DNA of 32,418 nt from Pseudomonadota bacterium (lineage in GTDB: Bacteria; Pseudomonadota; Gammaproteobacteria; Burkholderiales; Thiobacillaceae): positions 1-32,418 of the forward strand of contig JAUYET010000116.1 in assembly GCA_030691265.1 (NCBI GenBank). The letters are read 5' to 3'. Position 1 is the stretch's first letter. Every line of letters starts with the position of its first letter. Made by a program: the position numbers and the translations under genes. This document shows, in pieces, positions 8,528 to 20,942 of this stretch. Below the pieces are notes generated by a model that was given only the letters and a program-made list of their open reading frames with translations, was not told the DNA's origin and did not search any database.

Positions 8528-9721
<1,194 letters not shown>

Positions 9722-9727
9722 TCATGG

Positions 9728-9756
9728 TGGCCGCAGCACGCTTTACCCTGCGGCCA
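9728..9756 (+). terminator. hairpin after metK
   Basis: A perfect 9-bp stem, TGGCCGCAG (9728-9736) with CTGCGGCCA (9748-9756), begins 7 bases after the metK stop. No T-run follows, so it is at best a weak or Rho-assisted terminator, or an mRNA-stabilising hairpin. Confidence 0.45.
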
Positions 9757-9791
9757 GCGAGTACTCGTAGCGCAACGTATTGGAGGCCACC

Positions 9792-10265
9792 ATGCAATGG
9801 TCAGAAGTTCTATCCGACAAGTCTTTAAGAGACCTGCCGTACAAAATCGAACTCGACAAATGGGGGAACGTGATCATGAGTCCGGCAAGCAATCGGCATG
9901 GACGGTTGCAAGGCGTGCTATTTGCCTTGATGGAAAAATTGCCGCAAGGCCGCAGCCTGATCGAATGCTCCATCACCACCGACGAGGGCGTGAAAGTCGC
10001 CGATGTCGCCTGGTGTTCGGACACCTTCTTCGACCGCTTCGGCTACGAAACGCCCTACCCGCGCGCGCCGGAAATTTGCGTCGAAGTGCGCGCTCCGTCC
10101 AATTCCGAGGAAGAGCTCAACTTCAAAACCCGCCTCTATCTGGAAGCCGGCGCAAAGGAAGTCTGGATCGTTCTGGAAACCGGCGAAGCGCGCTTCTTCG
10201 GCGCCGAGGGCGAGCGGGTGCAGTCCGAATATGGCCTGGACCCCAGGCCGCTGCTAAATCACTGA
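9792..10265 (+). CDS. Uma2-type PD-(D/E)xK family protein, first of a pair
   Basis: A 158-residue protein of the Uma2 (DUF820) group, which has the restriction-endonuclease fold. The core is visible as VKVADVAW with D71, ICVEVRAPS with E98, then FKTRLYLEAGAKEVWIV with K112. The biological role of Uma2 proteins is unsettled; they are often encoded in multiple copies and linked loosely to mobile DNA or defence. The ATG at 9792 follows GGAGG at 9782-9786, so the frame before it is not used. It is 10 bases upstream of a second Uma2 gene. No catalytic claim is made beyond the fold. Confidence 0.8.
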   Translation: MQWSEVLSDKSLRDLPYKIELDKWGNVIMSPASNRHGRLQGVLFALMEKLPQGRSLIECSITTDEGVKVADVAWCSDTFFDRFGYETPYPRAPEICVEVRAPSNSEEELNFKTRLYLEAGAKEVWIVLETGEARFFGAEGERVQSEYGLDPRPLLNH

Positions 10266-10275
10266 GCGGCTCGCC

Positions 10276-10866
10276 TTGCAACTCGCCAAACAACACTGCC
10301 TGAGCGAAGCGGAATATCTGGCCTTCGAGGAAGCCAGCCCGACCCGCCACGAGTTTGTGGCGGGTGAGTTGTTCGCACTGGATGGGGTTAGCCAGCGGCA
10401 CAACCGCATCGCCGGCAACCTCGCCATCGCGTTGATGACCGTCTTTCGCGACAAACCCTGCCAAGTCTTCATGAGCGATGTGAAACTCCATGTCGCCCAA
10501 GGCAGCGCCTATTACTACCCGGATGTAATGGCGACCTGCACCGAGCAAGCCATTGCCGCTAACGAATCCCAGCTCGCCAGCGAGCCGGTGTTGGTGGTGG
10601 AAGTGCTTTCGCCCTCCACCGAAACCATCGACCGGCGCGAAAAACTGCACGCCTACCGCCGCCTGCCCTCGCTGCAGGAATACGCCCTGATCAGCCAGGA
10701 CATGCAACAGGTCGAAATCTATCGTCGTCAGGGCGAAGGTGGCGATATCGGCGCCTGGCTGTTCATCACCTATGAACCGGGGGACAACGTTGAATTCGCC
10801 AGCATCGGGCTGAGCCTGCCGATTGCCGAGTTGTACGCGGGGACGGATGTGGCCCGAATGCCATGA
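10276..10866 (+). CDS. Uma2-type PD-(D/E)xK family protein, second of a pair
   Basis: A 196-residue Uma2 family protein with the canonical layout: LSEAEYLAFEEASPTRHEFVAGE at the N-terminus, YYPDVMATC with D83, LVVEVLSPSTETIDRREKL with E109 and K123, and LPSLQEYALIS. It differs clearly from the Uma2 gene just upstream, so the pair is not a recent duplication. The best start is TTG at 10276, 10 bases after the preceding stop; no strong ribosome binding site is seen, so translational coupling is likely. It converges on the vsr gene with 100 bases between them. Fold is secure, role unknown. Confidence 0.85.
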   Translation: MQLAKQHCLSEAEYLAFEEASPTRHEFVAGELFALDGVSQRHNRIAGNLAIALMTVFRDKPCQVFMSDVKLHVAQGSAYYYPDVMATCTEQAIAANESQLASEPVLVVEVLSPSTETIDRREKLHAYRRLPSLQEYALISQDMQQVEIYRRQGEGGDIGAWLFITYEPGDNVEFASIGLSLPIAELYAGTDVARMP

Positions 10867-10966
10867 CCCTCGCTATCGCAAGCGACCAAGGTGCACGTGA
10901 CTCTGTAGAAAAATTCCGCGCAACCGGGATGCGTTTGGGCAATGGCAAGGCTGTCCCGCACTGTTT

Positions 10967-11458
10967 TCACTGGCCTGCTCGCCTTACGACAGACAGCTTG
11001 AATCGCTTTTCCCGCTCAGAGCGAATTCGCTCCACACATTCAACGAGATTTGTCTTGATCTCATGCTCCCATAAACGCACCACTGACCATCCCATAGTGG
11101 CGAGAGCCGCATCCACCTCCAAGTCCCTGACTTGATTACGCGTGATCTTAGCGGCCCAGAATGCCTCTCTAGTCTTGGGGTGAGAACCATGCAGAGGGCA
11201 GCCATGCCAGAAGCAGCCATCAACGAAGACGGCAATTTTGGCGCCTGGAAAAACCAGGTCCGGGCTTCCGGGAAGGTGAGGTTTCGAGCCAAGTCGGTAG
11301 CGTAGACCAGCAGTCCAAAGCGCCTGCCGCAAGAGAAGTTCAGGTGCAGTCCCCCGATGGCGAACTCGTCCCATCAAAAGGCTGCGGGCAGGTGTGGGAG
11401 GTTGGTCGTTACAGCTTGTCGAGTACGGCAGCGATACGACCAACTTTATTTTTGACAT
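10967..11458 (-). CDS. vsr: Vsr-like very short patch repair endonuclease
   Basis: Vsr nicks beside T:G mismatches left by deamination of 5-methylcytosine. The 163-residue product has the family core: TAPELLLRQALWTAGLRYR, PGSPDLVFPGAKIAVFVDGCFWHGC with the catalytic Asp and His/Cys zinc ligands, then WAAKITRNQVRD and GWSVVRLWEHEI. As written it starts at ATG 11458, overlapping the end of the ATPase gene by 50 bases and giving an N-terminal extension of about 25 residues before the usual ARSLLMGRVR. An internal start nearer that segment is possible. It is the last gene of the methylase-ATPase-vsr operon, which suggests either repair at sites modified by this methylase or a restriction role for the nuclease. 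Confidence 0.88.
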   Translation of the reverse strand: MSKIKLVVSLPYSTSCNDQPPTPARSLLMGRVRHRGTAPELLLRQALWTAGLRYRLGSKPHLPGSPDLVFPGAKIAVFVDGCFWHGCPLHGSHPKTREAFWAAKITRNQVRDLEVDAALATMGWSVVRLWEHEIKTNLVECVERIRSEREKRFKLSVVRRAGQ

Positions 11459-13433
11459 CGAGATAGCTCTGATAGGCCATCTTGGCGTTACCGATCAGAC
11501 CCGTGTAGGTCAGGAATTTCAAGTTGAATACTTCAAAAGAACGCGCCAATTTTTCGTTGATATCCGGTGCGCGATCTACAAGGAAAAAAACATCAATGAT
11601 CGGAGATTTCCCTTGCATCCCATTGAAATCTGGATGCTCGCGGTAAAACTGTTCCATTGCATCGACATATCTGCGCCCTTGTTCTTCAAGTTTTTTCGCC
11701 GCGACATAAAGCCCAGGTTTTTTCAGCTCGATGATTACGTGCCTCCCCGCAGTGGTTCTGTAGGCGATATCGAGCCGAGCACCTTCTTCTTCATCTGGGC
11801 AGGCACGCTTGAGTTCATCTGTCAGTGTCACCTCCCACTGTTCACTACCAGTTACCCGATCCCAAGATGGATCAAGCAACCAAAGGTGATCGAACAGATA
11901 TTTCTGGGCCACTCTCTCCTGTTTTTTCGCATCGACAATTTCTTCTTCGAATTTCCGGATGACTTCGAGCCTGGAACGGACGATGTCCAAGTAGTAGCTC
12001 TCTTCGAGATCATCCAGTGCAGTGAAAATGGCTTGAAACTCCGGGCTAAGCACATCGGTAATGTTTTCCAGCGCATCCAACTGGTGGCGAGCGCGCAATT
12101 TCTCGAAGCCGACCACGGCGCTCTTGTATAAGAGACGTTTCGCCTGGCGATCATTTTCATCGTTGTTGCTCAAATTGAGCTTGCTGATAGACGTCATCAG
12201 GCGGTCTGCCGCTCTTCGATCATGCTTGTCGGCAAAGCTGGCAATCCAGGTTTCGATATCGGGATTTTTCTCGGGGGCATTGCTGTAGCCCAGCGCATTC
12301 CGCCATTCGTCCCAGCGATCCCGGATATGGGTCAACGTTGTTCGAAGGTGCCGCCGCAATGCCTGGAATTCCTCGTCGTCATGCTTGATCGCTTCTCGGC
12401 TCGCTGTCGCACGATCGATCCCGTCCTGATCCAGGAAGTCGGCATGTACCTCACCGACTAGATAGCTATTGAAAAGGCGGGCGTCGCCCAGCTCAGACAG
12501 GATGTCTTCCTGGAACAGTCGCCCATTGGCGAATACCGAAATCCGGTTCAGGCTCTCGTCACCCTTACCAAGCTTGGCGGGCAAATCCACGGTGGCGATG
12601 ACGCCCCTCACAGTCAGTCCTGGTGGGGCACCCAAGATCAGAGCGTTGATTGCTTCGATGCAGGTTTTTTCCTCGCCGGTGGTTTCGTCAGTGAATTTGG
12701 CCAAATTGGGTGCCAATGCCAGTACATCGTCCCGTGCGGCATCGTCGAAATGCCACAGAAACTGGAAGTCGCCGTAGAACCCAGCATCCCTGCGTGTCAC
12801 CGGGCTTCCATTGAGCATGACTTTGAATGTATTGCCGAACACTCCAAAGCGGCGAGCTAGACGAGGGCGCAGGAAATCCGCTGTCCTATTGATCCTGGTG
12901 TTGAGTTTTCGTAGGGAAATACGTGTTCCGTGTGTTGCGCTGAAGTCGGCGGGGACATCAATCTCCTCGACGGGGTAGTCGAGGGGGATATCTGCAGCAT
13001 CATTGGCCCGGTTGGCCTGGTCACGTAGTTTCAGGACATCTATGCGGAACGCAACAACATCGGAATTCTCAGCGCGTGTCACGATATCGATCTGATCCGC
13101 CAAGGAGAACATGGCCAGTTTGCCTATTCCCTTGCGGCCCATGACCCTACGTTCGCCACTGCGGCTACGGTCTCCATTGGCTTCGCGTGTACGGCGGCTG
13201 TAGCCCACTTTGAGGAATTTCCCCGAGACATCATCGAACGTCATGCCGTGGCCGTTGTCTTCGACGAGGATGAGATCGTCCTCCGGTCGGACTTCGATCT
13301 TGACCTCACTGGCATCGGCATCCCATGCGTTCGAAATGATCTCGGTCACCACCGCAGGGGTCGAGCTATAGAGCCCAATACCCAAGTGATTGAGCACATT
13401 CAGTTCGATATGAAACTTGAGTTCCCTGGTCAT
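11409..13433 (-). CDS. MutL/MORC-like GHKL ATPase with C-terminal PD-(D/E)xK-like nuclease
   Basis: A 674-residue protein. The N-terminal GHKL ATPase (about 1-190) shows the N-box TEIISNAWDADAS with E31 and N35, G1 EDNGHGM with D59, and G2 GRKGIGKLAMFS (99-110). An S5-like middle region follows (about 190-340, ISVFANGRLFQ), then a long helical segment (about 350-510). The C-terminal domain (about 515-674) has ARLDIAY with D555 and VIIELKKPG with E569 and K571, the spacing of a PD-(D/E)xK nuclease. GHKL-S5 ATPases related to MutL and eukaryotic MORC proteins are known in predicted restriction systems beside cytosine methylases and Vsr. Here it lies 3 bases after the methylase gene, with TAGGA as its ribosome binding site. 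Nuclease assignment is from motifs only. Confidence 0.82.
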   Translation of the reverse strand: MTRELKFHIELNVLNHLGIGLYSSTPAVVTEIISNAWDADASEVKIEVRPEDDLILVEDNGHGMTFDDVSGKFLKVGYSRRTREANGDRSRSGERRVMGRKGIGKLAMFSLADQIDIVTRAENSDVVAFRIDVLKLRDQANRANDAADIPLDYPVEEIDVPADFSATHGTRISLRKLNTRINRTADFLRPRLARRFGVFGNTFKVMLNGSPVTRRDAGFYGDFQFLWHFDDAARDDVLALAPNLAKFTDETTGEEKTCIEAINALILGAPPGLTVRGVIATVDLPAKLGKGDESLNRISVFANGRLFQEDILSELGDARLFNSYLVGEVHADFLDQDGIDRATASREAIKHDDEEFQALRRHLRTTLTHIRDRWDEWRNALGYSNAPEKNPDIETWIASFADKHDRRAADRLMTSISKLNLSNNDENDRQAKRLLYKSAVVGFEKLRARHQLDALENITDVLSPEFQAIFTALDDLEESYYLDIVRSRLEVIRKFEEEIVDAKKQERVAQKYLFDHLWLLDPSWDRVTGSEQWEVTLTDELKRACPDEEEGARLDIAYRTTAGRHVIIELKKPGLYVAAKKLEEQGRRYVDAMEQFYREHPDFNGMQGKSPIIDVFFLVDRAPDINEKLARSFEVFNLKFLTYTGLIGNAKMAYQSYLDVKNKVGRIAAVLDKL

Positions 13434-13436
13434 TTT

Positions 13437-14471
13437 TTATCCTATTGATACGTTCACATGATCCATGAATATTTTGCCTACCAATTCGCCTAATCGTGGC
13501 GGAACCGCGTTCCCGATCATTCTTCCCACTGACGCGAAGTGTGCAATCTCACCGGGTGGCACAAATCTGTAGTCGTCCGGGAACGACTGGATGATGGCCG
13601 CTTCCCTTAGCGTGATGCCACGGTCCTGTTCTGGATGGCCGAAACGGCCCGTACCGAAGTTGTAGCACTGGGTCGTCATCGTCGGGGCAGGTTGGTCCCA
13701 ACTCATGCGCGCGTACACGCTCTTGAAAGAGGCGCCGGTTGACGCGAGGTGGCAAGGTGCGCGGAGTTCCTCGGGCCAATCTTCCCAGGTTCCACCTGGC
13801 CTCGATGCTCTGATGCGGCGGAGATTCACCAGGTTGAGGTTCCGTGCTTTATGCAAAGGATCGGTAGCGTCAGCTTGACCCGCCGCGAGCTTCGGCAAAT
13901 GTCCGATGGCTTCCCGGACGGTTCGCACAGGCCCGGATGGCGGTGGAATTCGCACAGGCCCGAGACGAGAGGCGACGAGCACGAAGCGTCTGCGCTCTTG
14001 AGGAATCCCATAATCGGCACAGCGAGCCCGCCTCGAGCTGACGTGGTACCCCAATGTTTCCAAGGTTTCGACGAAGCTGCGGTAGGGCGCATGGTTGGTG
14101 ACTCTGGGCACGTTTTCCATGGTCACCAGTTCCGGCTTTAGTTCGCGCACGAGTCGGGCAAATTCTTCCAGCAACCCCCACTTCGTCTCGTCTTTTTTTT
14201 CGCAGACGTTGGCCAGCGTAGAAAACGGTTGGCAAGGCGCACACCCCGCCAGCAAACAAATCGCACCGGGCGAATACCAACTCGCCAAATCGGCACCGCT
14301 CAGTTCTGACACGCTTTGGGTTACAAAAGTAGCGCCGTTGTTGGATTCATATGGGTATTTACAGGCAGGATCAATGTCGTAGCCGGCGCGGACCTGCACG
14401 CCTGCGGACCGTAACCCGCACGTCAGGCCTCCAACCCCACAGAACAAATCCACTGCCTCGATAGCTGGCAT
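13437..14471 (-). CDS. dcm: DNA (cytosine-5) methyltransferase
   Basis: A C5-cytosine DNA methylase of 344 residues. Motif I is VDLFCGVGGL (7-17), motif IV GCAPCQPFS with catalytic C80, motif VI MENVP (118-122), motif VIII QERRRF (158-163), and motif X GNAVPP (320-325). The target-recognition region spans about 175-290; the recognised sequence cannot be read from it. The frame is open another 32 codons upstream, but the start at 14471 (MPAIEAVDLF) puts motif I at the usual distance. An AT-rich TATATAGAATG just upstream of it looks like promoter, not coding sequence. First gene of a tight operon with the GHKL ATPase-nuclease and vsr. Base composition is visibly lower in GC than metK or cheA. 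Confidence 0.93.
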   Translation of the reverse strand: MPAIEAVDLFCGVGGLTCGLRSAGVQVRAGYDIDPACKYPYESNNGATFVTQSVSELSGADLASWYSPGAICLLAGCAPCQPFSTLANVCEKKDETKWGLLEEFARLVRELKPELVTMENVPRVTNHAPYRSFVETLETLGYHVSSRRARCADYGIPQERRRFVLVASRLGPVRIPPPSGPVRTVREAIGHLPKLAAGQADATDPLHKARNLNLVNLRRIRASRPGGTWEDWPEELRAPCHLASTGASFKSVYARMSWDQPAPTMTTQCYNFGTGRFGHPEQDRGITLREAAIIQSFPDDYRFVPPGEIAHFASVGRMIGNAVPPRLGELVGKIFMDHVNVSIG

Positions 14472-14678
14472 TGCGCACCCCGTTTTAGGTGTGCGCATTC
14501 TATATAAACAAGTAAGTCGCCTCTCGTTTATCCACTGCAAGGGCCGCCTTGGACGGCAAACCGCCACCCGATGGGGTCAAGCCTGGATGTCTCTTCCAGG
14601 TCGAAACCAGCCATTCACTTCAGGTTAAAACCCACTAGCGCCTTCGATCTTTCGCTGGATGGTAAATGGCCAAAAAGC

Positions 14679-14706
14679 AAAACGGCCCGCTTTCGCGGGC
14701 CGTTTT
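14679..14706 (-). terminator. intrinsic terminator of metY
   Basis: A perfect 12-bp stem (14679-14690 with 14695-14706) closes a TTTC tetraloop. On the minus strand it is followed by GCTTTTTGG after a T4 within the stem, a good intrinsic terminator 17 bases after the metY stop. On the plus strand TTTTGTTTTG follows, so it also works in the other direction. The rest of the 14472-14722 gap holds only the likely methylase promoter; I see no gene there. Confidence 0.88.
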
Positions 14707-14722
14707 GTTTTGTGACACCAAT

Positions 14723-15997
14723 TTACTTCGCCGCGTTCAACGCCTGATCGATATCCGCCATCAGGTCGTCAATATGCTCGATGCCGATCGACAGCCGGAC
14801 CAGGTCTTCCGACACGCCGGCCTTGGCCAGTTCGTCCGGTGAGAGTTGGCGGTGCGTCGTGGTGGCGGGGTGACAAGCCAGCGATTTGGCGTCGCCGATA
14901 TTGACCAGACGAACGATCAGATTCAGCGCGTCGATGAATTTCGCGCCGGCTTCGCGGCCGCCCTTGATGCCGAAGGAGACGATGCCGGAGGCCTTGCCGC
15001 CCATGTATTTGTCGGCCAGCGGTTTGAACAGCGAATCGGGCAGGCCGGCGTATTGCACCCAGGACACCTGCGGATGCGCACGCAGCTTTTCGGCGATGTG
15101 CTGGGCGTTTTCGCAGATGCGGTCCATGCGCAGAGGCAGGGTTTCGATGCCTTGCAGGATCAGGAAGCTGTTGAACGGCGAGATCGCCGCGCCCATGTTG
15201 CGCAGCGGCACGACGCGGGCGCGGCCGATGTAGGCGGCGGCGCCGAGCGCTTCGGTGTAGACGACGCCGTGGTAGGAGGCATCCGGTTCGTTCAGGCAGG
15301 CGAAGCGCTGCTTGTGTTCGGCCCAGGGGAATTTGCCGGAATCGACGATCATGCCGCCGATGCTGTTGCCGTGGCCGCCCAGGTACTTGGTCAGCGCATG
15401 CACGACGATGTCGGCGCCGTGTTCGAACGGCCGGCACAGATAAGGTGTCGGCACGGTGTTGTCGACGATCAGCGGGATGCCGTGCGCGTGCGCCAGTTCG
15501 GCCAGCTTCTCGAAGTCGGTGACATTGCCGAGCGGATTGCCGACCGACTCGCAGTAGAGGGCCTTGGTGCGCGCGTCGATCAGCTTCTCGAAGCTGTCCG
15601 GCTCGCGGTAATCGGCGAAGCGGACTTCGATGCCGTAGCGCGGCAGCGTGTGGGCGAACAGGTTGTAGGTGCCGCCGTACAGCGTGGAGCTGGTGACGAT
15701 GTTATCGCCGGCTTCGGCGATGGTCATGATCGCGTAGGTGATCGCCGCCATGCCCGAGGCCAGCGCCAGCCCCCCGATGCCACCCTCCATTTCGGCGACC
15801 CGCTTTTCCAGCACATCGGTGGTCGGATTCATGATGCGGGTGTAGATGTTGCCGGCGACTTTCAGGTCGAACAGGTCGGCGCCGTGCTGGGTCGAATCGA
15901 AGGCGTAGGACGTGGTCTGGTAGATCGGAACGGCGACCGCTTTGGTGGTCGGTTCCGGGCTGTAGCCGCCGTGGACGGCGATGGTTTCGATCTTCAT
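14723..15997 (-). CDS. metY: O-acetylhomoserine sulfhydrylase (aminocarboxypropyltransferase)
   Basis: MetY is a PLP enzyme that makes homocysteine from O-acetylhomoserine and sulfide, the direct sulfhydrylation route to methionine. The 424-residue protein has the Cys/Met-metabolism fold: TRIMNPTTDVLEKRVAEMEGG, the YGGTYNLF phosphate-binding region, IVDNTVPTPYLCRP, and the PLP lysine K204 in HALTKYLGGHGNSIGG. The length (about 425) and the LxKYLGGHG context favour MetY over MetB or MetZ. Start at 15997 follows AAAGGAGG by 6 bases; the frame upstream is not used. It lies 44 bases after the AddB-like gene and ends at a strong terminator. Confidence 0.94.
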   Translation of the reverse strand: MKIETIAVHGGYSPEPTTKAVAVPIYQTTSYAFDSTQHGADLFDLKVAGNIYTRIMNPTTDVLEKRVAEMEGGIGGLALASGMAAITYAIMTIAEAGDNIVTSSTLYGGTYNLFAHTLPRYGIEVRFADYREPDSFEKLIDARTKALYCESVGNPLGNVTDFEKLAELAHAHGIPLIVDNTVPTPYLCRPFEHGADIVVHALTKYLGGHGNSIGGMIVDSGKFPWAEHKQRFACLNEPDASYHGVVYTEALGAAAYIGRARVVPLRNMGAAISPFNSFLILQGIETLPLRMDRICENAQHIAEKLRAHPQVSWVQYAGLPDSLFKPLADKYMGGKASGIVSFGIKGGREAGAKFIDALNLIVRLVNIGDAKSLACHPATTTHRQLSPDELAKAGVSEDLVRLSIGIEHIDDLMADIDQALNAAK

Positions 15998-18926: not shown

Positions 18927-19215
18927 AGCAGTCAGTATAAGCACACCGCTTTCACTTGGGTACCGGGGCGGTTTCGCCCAAGCCTGAGACAGGGGCCATT
19001 TTCATCCGCTCCCCGTCTCCACCCCACCCGACTCGTCCCATGTTTTAGTCAAAATACGACATATCACTTAATTAGTTCGCCACTTTAAGACAATAACCCA
19101 CTATGACCGGCTTTGATTAGCCCAAACCAGACAAACCCAGTCCATCCATTATTTAGCCTTATTTGGACATATAGTCGCTACACTTAGCTGATATACGACA
19201 TTCTTGGGCCTCTCC
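18927..19215. other. AT-rich non-coding stretch upstream of the Fic-fusion gene
   Basis: No gene is supported in these 289 bases. The right part (from about 19040) is far richer in A and T than the surroundings. Related short motifs recur: ATACGACATAT (19054-19064), GACATATAGTCG (19166-19177) and ATACGACATT (19193-19202). They could be operator sites for the N-terminal winged-helix domain of the downstream protein, as AbiEi-type antitoxins are autoregulatory. A TATAGT at 19170-19175 is a possible -10, but no good -35 is seen. Confidence 0.4.
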
Positions 19216-20721
19216 ATGGTTTCGCTAGTTGAAAAAAGCCCCGCCGATACGCTTTTCTTTGCGAGCGAGGGACCTGTAATCGCCAAGCAACTTCAGCGCC
19301 GTGCGGCCGCCGGAGAGTTGATTCGCGTTGCGCCTGGCATTTACACCCTGAATGGAGACCCCGCAGAAGTCGAGGGACGCATCAGAAGGAACTGGCAAGT
19401 ATTGGCAGGCAAGCTGGCCCCTGGCGCAGTGGTATCGCATATCAGCGAGTTCAAGGGCGGCATTACCGAGGAGGGCTATGTCACCCTGAGTCATCCCACA
19501 CGCTTCAACAAGACGCTCAAGTTTCCCGGCTTGCAACTGGTCTTGCTTCAGGGCCCGAGTCAGTTACCGGGTGATATGCGCTTGGGGTCCACGGGACTCT
19601 TCTGGGCATCGCGGCCGCGAGCCTTGCTGGAAAACCTGGGGCGTGTCGTGAAGAAGCGGCCTACCCGCGCCGGCCGCGAAGCCGTCGAGGAAAAGCTTGT
19701 GGCCATCCTGAACGCCATCAAGGAGGCTGGCCTGAACCGGCTACGCGACGCAGCGCGTGAGCTGGCGCCCCAGCTCGGCGCCGAAGCGGAATTTACCGCG
19801 TTGGACAAGATGATAGGCGCGCTCCTCGGAACACATGCCAGGGGCGAGTTGAGAACACGCATAGGCCATCTGGTCGCCAGCGGCACCCCCGTGGACACCG
19901 GGTGCATGGCCAGGCTCGAAATTCTGGCATCCGCCCTACGCAGCAGTGTCTTGCCCGCCATCCCAGACGTAGCAAGTTCTGGGGACGCCAAAATTCACTT
20001 CGCCCTGCTGGAGTCCTATTTTTCCAACTATGTAGAAGGCACTAAATTCTCAATCGAGGAAGCGGAAGGGATTGTGCTGAGAAACAAGGTGGTGGAGAGC
20101 CGCCCCAAGGATTCCCACGACATCTTGGGCGTGTTTCATCAAGCCATCACTGCGGGTACTCGCGACACCGTGCCGCCCCCGGGCACACCGTTTCCCGAAG
20201 GGTTACAGCAAAGGCACCGAGAAATGCTGGCCCTCCGCCCAGAGGTTCATCCCGGCGAGATCAAGAGCGAGCCCAATTTTGCTGGAACGACGCGATTTGT
20301 TGACCCGGCCTATGTCCGCGGTACGCTCCAAGAAGGCTCTGCTATGGCCCTTAGCGTTCCTGAAGGGCTTGCCCGAGCCATTTTTTACGCCTTCTTCGTC
20401 GCCGATGTTCACCCCTTCGAGGACGGCAATGGCCGCCTGTCTCGGTTAACCATGAACGCGGAGCTATCTCGGTTGGGCTTGTGTCGTATCGTTATCCCGA
20501 CGTTGTTTCATCCCCAGTATGTCGATTGTCAGAAGGCGCTGACGCAGGGGAACGAGCCAGCCGGGTTAATCAGCGCCCTGGCAAAGGCCGCAGTGTGGTG
20601 CGCTCAGTTCGAGTATTCAAACTTCAAGACCCTCATTGCGACGGCAAGAAACACGAATGCATTCGAAGAGTCGCCCATGCAATTTCGGTTATTGAACATC
20701 GATGGGTCAAAAATGGCCTAG
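19216..20721 (+). CDS. AbiEi-like winged helix fused to Fic domain
   Basis: A 501-residue two-part protein. The N-terminal region (about 1-150) resembles AbiEi-type antitoxin/regulator proteins: a winged helix ending RRAAAGELIRVAPGIYTL, then AVVSHISEFKGG and a beta-rich segment ending RPRALLENL. The C-terminal part is a Fic domain with the complete active-site motif HPFEDGNGRLSR (399-410) and, before it, the inhibitory helix motif SNYVEG (270-275), the (S/T)xxxE(G/N) signature of self-inhibited Fic enzymes. Fic proteins usually transfer AMP to a protein target. The complete catalytic and inhibitory motifs suggest a functional, regulated enzyme. ATG 19216 is preferred; an in-frame TTG lies 12 bases upstream, and no Shine-Dalgarno is evident. 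It is the only gene of the tRNA-Phe element. Confidence 0.85.
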   Translation: MVSLVEKSPADTLFFASEGPVIAKQLQRRAAAGELIRVAPGIYTLNGDPAEVEGRIRRNWQVLAGKLAPGAVVSHISEFKGGITEEGYVTLSHPTRFNKTLKFPGLQLVLLQGPSQLPGDMRLGSTGLFWASRPRALLENLGRVVKKRPTRAGREAVEEKLVAILNAIKEAGLNRLRDAARELAPQLGAEAEFTALDKMIGALLGTHARGELRTRIGHLVASGTPVDTGCMARLEILASALRSSVLPAIPDVASSGDAKIHFALLESYFSNYVEGTKFSIEEAEGIVLRNKVVESRPKDSHDILGVFHQAITAGTRDTVPPPGTPFPEGLQQRHREMLALRPEVHPGEIKSEPNFAGTTRFVDPAYVRGTLQEGSAMALSVPEGLARAIFYAFFVADVHPFEDGNGRLSRLTMNAELSRLGLCRIVIPTLFHPQYVDCQKALTQGNEPAGLISALAKAAVWCAQFEYSNFKTLIATARNTNAFEESPMQFRLLNIDGSKMA

Positions 20722-20862: not shown

Positions 20863-20892
20863 TTTTTGGTGGCCAGAGGCGGAATCGAACCG
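20863..20892 (-). repeat. right attachment-site repeat within intact tRNA-Phe
   Basis: Identical over 30 bases to 18897-18926. It covers the 3' end of tRNA-Phe plus four T bases beyond the CCA. Together the two copies define the limits of the inserted DNA. Nothing else of note lies between the Fic-fusion stop at 20721 and this point. Confidence 0.87.
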
Positions 20893-20942
20893 TCGACACG
20901 CGGATTTTCAATCCGCTGCTCTACCAACTGAGCTATCTGGCC
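20867..20942 (-). tRNA. tRNA-Phe (GAA)
   Basis: A complete 76-base tRNA on the minus strand. Acceptor GGCCAGA pairs with TCTGGCC, followed by ACCA with CCA encoded. The D arm reads AGCTCAGTTGGTAGAGC, the anticodon stem GCGGA/TCCGC holds loop TTGAAAA with anticodon GAA (complement of 20907-20909), and the T loop is GGTTCGATTCC. The gene is intact although its 3' end doubles as an attachment site for the neighbouring element. Confidence 0.96.

What the first reader, a model, noticed from the sequence alone, without database searches (positions are those of the whole stretch)
10967..14471. Methylase, GHKL ATPase-nuclease and Vsr operon: a MORC/MutL-like restriction or defence system
Three genes are packed with a 3-base gap and a 50-base overlap: a C5-cytosine methylase, a 674-residue GHKL-S5 ATPase ending in a PD-(D/E)xK-like domain, and a Vsr-like endonuclease. 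Comparative work has linked MutL/MORC-type ATPases with methylases and Vsr nucleases in predicted restriction systems, but their mechanism remains little explored. Here the ATPase itself appears to carry a nuclease, so the operon would have two nucleases, one ATP-gated, with the methylase protecting self DNA.
Basis: partly seen in the sequence, partly recalled or inferred. Interest (0 to 1): 0.75.

Follow-up and report, generated by a model that had tools for sequence, protein, structure and literature searches.

The report
ATPase-fused restriction system with repair gene
This looks like a complete bacterial restriction-modification cassette whose DNA-cutting enzyme is fused to a MutL/Hsp90-type ATPase; the enzyme family already has a name in databases, but whether ATP controls its cutting remains to be tested, and relatives turn up inside another phage-defence system.

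Summary
It is a new member of a known kind. The 674-aa protein scores 699 bits (cut-off 550) against NCBIfam NF050001, 'BbrUII/HgiDII family restriction enzyme'. Its plan, GHKL ATPase + S5 + C-terminal PD-(D/E)xK nuclease, was described in 2008 as paraMORC3. A stand-alone relative, VcSduA, loses phage defence when its ATPase or nuclease residue is mutated. Most likely it is an m5C restriction-modification system, probably for GTCGAC (the M.HgiDII site; site counts here are inconclusive). The Vsr is probably an optional repair enzyme for deaminated 5-methylcytosine, not a second restriction nuclease: its presence changes 16 times on the ATPase tree, and it is absent from 14 of 14 DrmMI-type DISARM loci but present in 25 of 57 loci with the methylase. 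The cassette is accessory DNA: in a congener the metK and metZ matches end 52 bp apart. Of the 80 nearest relatives, 16 lie in DISARM operons, a minority variant: 0 of 5 sampled DrmMI loci had the ATPase.

The parts
13437..14471 (-). C5-cytosine DNA methyltransferase (344 aa from the ATG at 14471), likely M.HgiDII-type
   Evidence: PF00145 5.6e-50; TIGR00675 118.2 bits, cut-off 100.65; PADLOC DrmMII and MTase_II models; stretch with the target-recognition region more conserved across 60 loci than the core
11409..13433 (-). GHKL ATPase fused to a PD-(D/E)xK nuclease, BbrUII/HgiDII family restriction enzyme (674 aa)
   Evidence: NF050001 699.2 bits, cut-off 550; PADLOC REase_II 1.2e-81; catalytic residues invariant in 64 of 64 rows; AlphaFold2 model mean pLDDT 87
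11412..11930 (-). C-terminal nuclease region of the same protein (about residues 502-674; E506, E534, D555, E569, K571)
   Evidence: Foldseek best matches FokI, MspJI, Nt.BspD6I, with unrelated chains such as Rad50 among the next ranks (best E 0.005); SduA_C, NucS_C, PDDEXK_4 and HSDR_N matches below cut-off
12900..13433 (-). GHKL ATP-binding domain of the same protein (about residues 1-178; E31, N35, D59, K105)
   Evidence: HATPase_c_3 over residues 26-137; Hsp90/TRAP1 best fold matches; HtpG and MutL in the profile search of solved chains
10967..11458 (-). Vsr (very short patch repair) endonuclease, 163 aa; start codon uncertain
   Evidence: TIGR00632 127.6 bits, cut-off 97.85; aligns with E. 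coli Vsr 1cw0, E 5.9e-15
9715..14728 (.). Accessory insertion between convergent metK and metZ; holds two Uma2 genes and the operon
   Evidence: In congener G003 (L140) the matches that end at window 9714 and begin at 14729 lie 52 bp apart

Best explanation
It is a mobile type II-like m5C restriction-modification cassette of the BbrUII/HgiDII kind. The methylase marks a C in its site, probably GTCGAC. The GHKL-nuclease protein dimerises through its ATPase, as GHKL proteins do (general knowledge), recognises the unmethylated site and cuts with its C-terminal PD-(D/E)xK domain; ATP binding and hydrolysis probably control clamp closure or cutting. The Vsr repairs T:G mismatches left when 5-methylcytosine in the site deaminates. 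Shown here: gene content, family membership, conserved active sites, linkage to the methylase, insertion at a site that is empty in a congener. Inferred: the site, dimerisation, cutting, ATP gating, and the Vsr's repair role. Likelihoods: restriction-modification system 0.9; GTCGAC site 0.65; ATP needed for restriction in cells 0.6; Vsr as repair enzyme 0.8.
For: NF050001 equivalog 149 bits above cut-off; all 64 members of A2 (window included) match NF050001 at 1e-50 or better. A C5 methylase lies within the held flank in 57 of 80 nearest genome relatives. Methylase and ATPase identities correlate across 60 loci (rho 0.31, 0 of 999 permutations as high). The methylase stretch 250-335, which holds most of the target-recognition region and the start of the next motif, is more conserved than residues 33-250 (0.74 against 0.56, a coarse measure), which suggests one site for the family; M.HgiDII is a characterised GTCGAC m5C methylase (passage). 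ATPase and nuclease residues invariant. VcSduA E27A and K557A abolish defence (passage). Vsr: 16 changes on the tree among methylase rows, rho -0.10 with the ATPase over 29 loci, 0 of 14 in DrmMI-type DISARM loci against 25 of 57 with a C5 methylase, Fisher p 0.0013 with relatedness ignored.
Against: GTCGAC avoidance is not specific. The host has 343 sites in 2.02 Mb, third lowest per base of 23 genomes of the genus, but two congeners without a family match (E 1e-60) are lower, and base composition differs. In a 260-kb sample the observed/expected ratio is 0.39, rank 8 of 64 palindromes, against 0.96, 0.71, 0.90 and 0.07 in four congener samples. In loci of the window's clade (16) it is 1.44, the highest of 64; in 43 other methylase loci 0.78, rank 34; in 20 loci without methylase 1.28, rank 59, under a second-order background. 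No sequence of M.HgiDII or M.BbrUII was compared (one search found no record of a Haloferax relative). The methylase-ATPase correlation is modest. The C-terminal fold matches are weak (best E 0.005, non-nucleases such as Rad50 close behind) and no Pfam nuclease model is known to reach its cut-off in the window. No promoter-like site was found ahead of the operon (1 match in the region, on the other strand, fewer than in shuffles).
Confidence: 0.87

Rival explanations
1. Shedu/VcSduA-like defence: the ATPase-nuclease senses phage DNA features rather than one sequence, and the neighbouring methylase only protects host DNA or is incidental.
For: Same domain plan as VcSduA, described as an independent system (passages); SduA_C is the commonest Pfam match of the C-terminal region (12 of 21, best 1.7e-4).
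Against: SduA_C stays below its cut-off in the window (16.0 against 27); methylase adjacency in 57 of 80 and correlation with the methylase; NF050001 assignment.
Confidence: 0.08
2. A decayed or reduced DISARM locus: the methylase is DrmMII-like and the ATPase is a leftover DISARM part.
For: The methylase's best PADLOC model is DrmMII (5.4e-91); 16 of 80 ATPase relatives lie in DISARM operons.
Against: No DrmA, DrmB, DrmD or DrmMI in the window by profiles built from fetched DISARM genes; the DISARM rows fall into two sets away from the window's clade; the methylase-ATPase pair without DISARM is the common arrangement.
Confidence: 0.03
3. The Vsr is a working part of restriction (a second, nicking nuclease) rather than a repair gene.
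For: Overlapping reading frames in the window and in L015 suggest co-translation; the 2008 paper lists Vsr nucleases among the partners of MORC and paraMORC operons.
Against: No Vsr in the held flank of 32 of 57 methylase loci; 16 changes on the tree; no correlation with the ATPase; opposite orientation or far side of the methylase in several loci.
Confidence: 0.12

Closest known systems
BbrUII / HgiDII restriction-modification systems (NCBIfam NF050001)
   Same: Full-length match over cut-off; C5 methylase partner; M.HgiDII is an m5C GTCGAC methylase (passage)
   Different: A Vsr gene overlaps the ATPase here; site not tested; no direct sequence comparison with the named enzymes was made
paraMORC3 of Iyer, Abhiman and Aravind 2008 (PMC2292703; parts 1 and 2 of 4 read)
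   Same: GHKL + S5 + C-terminal RE-fold nuclease with E-D-ExK motif; neighbours of the group include methylases and Vsr
   Different: The paper predicts function from context; the parts read give no recognition site or named enzyme for this group
VcSduA, a Shedu with a GHKL N-terminus (PMC12137116, passages)
   Same: GHKL ATPase plus PD-(D/E)xK; E27 and K557 needed for defence, probably the counterparts of E31 and K571 here (not aligned by me)
   Different: Described as an independent system; SduA_C is below its cut-off in the window protein
E. coli Vsr (1cw0)
   Same: Aligned over query residues 24-135, E 5.9e-15
   Different: Partner methylase differs (Dcm in E. coli is recalled); target would be the cassette's own site
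DISARM
   Same: A related GHKL-nuclease is part of some DISARM operons; DrmMII-like methylase model
   Different: No DISARM core genes found in the window

Membership tests
BbrUII/HgiDII family restriction enzyme (NF050001) | Full-length match above the curated cut-off | tested here: met
   699.2 bits, cut-off 550, positions 2-659 of 659
BbrUII/HgiDII family restriction enzyme (NF050001) | Adjacent C5-cytosine methylase | tested here: met
   13437-14471, 3-base gap
BbrUII/HgiDII family restriction enzyme (NF050001) | Recognition of GTCGAC | tested here: inconclusive
   Conserved target-recognition stretch; site counts give no specific signal
BbrUII/HgiDII family restriction enzyme (NF050001) | DNA cleavage blocked by cognate methylation | not testable with these tools
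   needs an enzyme assay
paraMORC3 | GHKL + S5 + C-terminal RE-fold domain with E-D-ExK | tested here: met
   E506/E534, D555, E569-x-K571 invariant in 64 rows; model and fold matches, weak for the C-terminal part
MORC (proper) | GhXhhpXXRhl motif in the S5 domain | tested here: not met
   No match, strict or relaxed, in the window protein
Shedu (SduA_C/DUF4263) | Pfam SduA_C above cut-off | tested here: not met
   16.0 bits, cut-off 27
Vsr endonuclease | Curated family score | tested here: met
   TIGR00632 127.6 bits, cut-off 97.85
DISARM | DrmA and DrmB in the locus | tested here: not met
   Profiles built from fetched DrmA, DrmB, DrmD and DrmMI proteins found none over 60 bits in the window

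The most novel reading that the evidence does not exclude
The GHKL-nuclease is an exchangeable ATP-gated cutting module. The same protein family serves as a sequence-specific restriction enzyme beside a C5 methylase and as an extra nuclease inside a DISARM variant, downstream of DrmMI and in 10 of 14 such loci just before DrmA. If so, cutting is a clamp-type, nucleotide-switched reaction unlike that of ordinary type II enzymes.
Probability: 0.35. Interest if true: 0.62.

Novelty: new member of a known kind. Interest (0 to 1): 0.42.

Why it matters
A restriction enzyme built on a MutL/Hsp90-type ATPase is a simple, three-gene, clonable test of how GHKL clamps control nucleases, a question shared with MutL, topoisomerases, MORC and Shedu. 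The DISARM link offers a second context in which the same module would work with a different (adenine) mark, so its dependence on sequence, methylation and ATP could be separated.

Tried and rejected
GTCGAC avoidance as proof of the site was tried on a 260-kb sample of the host, four congener samples, relatives' loci, and whole-genome counts in 23 genomes. Rejected as non-specific.

MORC membership was rejected on the motif test. The Vsr as a co-evolving part was rejected. The operon as a DISARM remnant was rejected.

A general rule that DrmMI-type DISARM carries this ATPase was rejected. Six of 398 genomes drawn from the window's phylum matched one DrmMI model (PDLC02643, E 1e-100); five of those loci could be read beyond the gene (the sixth is a 3,963-base contig) and none had the ATPase. 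One control genome of 14 also matched and was not looked at.

Viral contigs gave two distant partial relatives (one protein query). Direct repeats at the ends of the insertion were sought and none convincing was seen.

Literature. Two searches for HgiDII and BbrUII listed four papers each; I opened passages of PMC5867850 and PMC6329791 and of PMC4618763 and PMC4537262 (in the passages shown the term was BbrUIII, not BbrUII). One search listed 12 of 83 papers; only PMC5867850 of these was opened. None of the passages speaks of ATP. That HgiDII was long ago assayed as an ordinary type II enzyme is my recollection only. A published link of this ATPase family with DISARM was not seen in searches. 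I saw the listings (20 of 97) and opened passages of PMC9142583 and PMC10273834; the library holds open-licence papers only, so absence from print is not shown.

Rows dropped. The tree left out L001, L003, L004, L005, L012, L013, L014 and L035 (duplicates, distant or broken copies). Its 'none' group includes rows with a lower-scoring methylase (L024, L061, L071), because the tree used a 340-bit limit, with L022, L025 and L077 added by hand. A2 holds the window plus 63 of the 81 usable relatives listed. The methylase count is 57 of 80 and 58 of 80, where one ORF may count for two profiles. In one search two loci (L045, L084) were labelled DISARM on a DrmMI match alone; I do not count them. PADLOC named DISARM proteins from three loci (L064, L030, L063); the other DISARM loci were recognised by profiles built from those proteins. 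The name 'class 1' for DrmMI-type DISARM is recalled.
Full report
What is there. On the minus strand of the window are a C5-cytosine methylase (13437-14471), a 674-aa GHKL ATPase (11409-13433) and a Vsr endonuclease (10967-11458), with a 3-base gap and a 50-base overlap. Profile libraries name all three. The decisive result is NCBIfam NF050001, 'BbrUII/HgiDII family restriction enzyme', at 699 bits against a cut-off of 550, end to end.

The nuclease. Across the 64 rows of A2 (the window plus 63 of the 81 usable relatives) E31, N35, D59 and K105 of the ATPase and E506, E534, D555, E569, K571 and Q585 of the C-terminal part never vary. In a smaller set with plasmid homologues, one archaeal protein has D at 569. 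The AlphaFold2 model (mean pLDDT 87, pTM 0.65) has an N-terminal part that matches Hsp90/TRAP1, a long helical middle and a C-terminal mixed domain. The C-terminal part modelled alone (pLDDT 77, pTM 0.67) matches FokI, MspJI and Nt.BspD6I at the top, but weakly (best E 0.005), with unrelated chains such as Rad50 close behind. Twelve of 21 C-terminal sequences touch Pfam SduA_C (best 1.7e-4), with NucS_C (5), PDDEXK_4 (5) and HSDR_N (4) behind; the window stays below the SduA_C cut-off. The motif and these matches together, not one alone, make the PD-(D/E)xK reading firm.

Context in relatives. A C5 methylase lies in the held flank of 57 of 80 and a Vsr in 27 of 80; some loci end at contig ends, so these are lower bounds. 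In the window's own clade of 18 rows, 16 have the methylase; of the other two, L023 starts at a contig end and L024 has only a lower-scoring methylase about 4 kb away. Of 9 plasmid relatives opened, 7 have an annotated cytosine methylase beside the ATPase on the same strand (two of these are from one species, Burkholderia glumae), one (Deinococcus) has it in the opposite direction, and Rubrobacter has none. So the ATPase is not mostly away from methylases.

Methylase and ATPase tend to travel together: their pairwise identities correlate over 60 loci (rho 0.31, 0 of 999 permutations as high). Methylase residues 250-335 (of the longer reading), which hold most of the target-recognition region and the start of the next motif, are more conserved than residues 33-250, 0.74 against 0.56. 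This coarse measure is what one expects if the family shares one site. M.HgiDII is a characterised m5C GTCGAC methylase and M.BbrUII a characterised m5C methylase (PMC5867850, passages). I therefore predict GTCGAC, but the genome counts do not prove it. The host has 343 sites in 2.02 Mb, third lowest per base of 23 in the genus, yet two congeners without a family match are lower. A 260-kb sample gives observed/expected 0.39, rank 8 of 64 palindromes; four congener samples give 0.96, 0.71, 0.90 and 0.07. Under another background model the 16 loci of the window's clade give 1.44, 43 other methylase loci 0.78 and 20 loci without methylase 1.28.

The Vsr. It aligns with E. coli Vsr. Among methylase-bearing rows its presence needs 16 changes on the ATPase tree. 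Its divergence does not follow the ATPase (rho -0.10, 29 loci). It lies on either side and in either direction. It was not found in any of 14 DrmMI-type DISARM loci, whose methylase marks adenine, against 25 of 57 loci with a C5 methylase (Fisher p 0.0013, relatedness ignored). This fits repair of deaminated 5-methylcytosine better than a second restriction nuclease.

Mobility. The nearest relative, L015 (a MAG titled Thiobacillus denitrificans, 78% protein identity), matches the window at 74% DNA identity over 11003-14503, with no match in the flanks at E 1e-5. In congener G003 the matches to metK and metZ end 52 bp apart, where the window has about 5.0 kb with two Uma2 genes and this operon. 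Of 101 genomes (the window's own and its relatives) only the window's own has the family, and 3 of 398 drawn from the phylum, at E 1e-60.

DISARM. Twenty-three of the 80 loci lack a methylase. Fourteen of these carry DrmMI upstream of the ATPase and DrmA downstream: DrmA is the next recognised gene in 10, comes after a gene matching methyl-directed restriction enzymes in one, and after DrmD in three. Two more have DrmA, DrmB, a further gene, Vsr, then the ATPase. On the tree these 16 need 2 changes of label, away from the window's clade. The arrangement is a minority one: 6 of 398 genomes had a DrmMI match, and none of the 5 readable loci had the ATPase. I did not see this link in the listings of searches or in the two papers of which I opened passages.

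Known or new. Iyer et al. 2008 described GHKL+S5+RE-fold proteins as paraMORC3 and noted methylase and Vsr neighbours for MORC and paraMORC operons (parts 1 and 2 of 4 read). A 2025 paper mutated the ATPase and nuclease residues of the stand-alone relative VcSduA, lost defence, and hypothesised that the ATPase controls the nuclease (passages). So the window holds a new member of a known kind. What stays open is direct: does a sequence-specific restriction enzyme of this family need ATP, and what does the module do in DISARM.

Noticed in passing
L030-L034, L037, L039, L042, L043, L046, L051, L057, L064, L066; L063, L067: Relatives of the ATPase-nuclease lie inside DISARM operons, downstream of DrmMI and in 10 of 14 just before DrmA; in L063 and L067 a Vsr sits between DrmB and the ATPase.
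   Followed up: partly
window 9715-14728; L140, L136: Accessory insertion of about 5.0 kb between convergent metK and metZ; in congener G003 the two matches end 52 bp apart. G002 (L136) stops matching the window at 14578 and has other ORFs there, so the site may be a hotspot.
   Followed up: partly
window 9780-10265 and 10276-10866: Two adjacent Uma2 (putative restriction endonuclease) genes inside the same insertion, on the opposite strand to the operon.
   Followed up: no
window 19204-20721: 505-aa protein with a Fic/DOC domain (3.7e-8) near a tRNA-Phe at 20867-20942.
   Followed up: no
G000 sample and G012: CTCGAG and CAGCTG are strongly avoided in the host sample (0.11 each) and in some congeners; GTCGAC is rare in G012 (134 in 3.1 Mb), where the family search found nothing at E 1e-60.
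   Followed up: no
L014 4001-5987: In one Burkholderia glumae plasmid the ATPase gene aligns in three pieces and is annotated shortened, so it looks broken; two sister plasmids match in one piece.
   Followed up: no
L155 18337-19000: A DISARM locus without the ATPase has a Vsr match and a C5-methylase piece beside DrmD.
   Followed up: no
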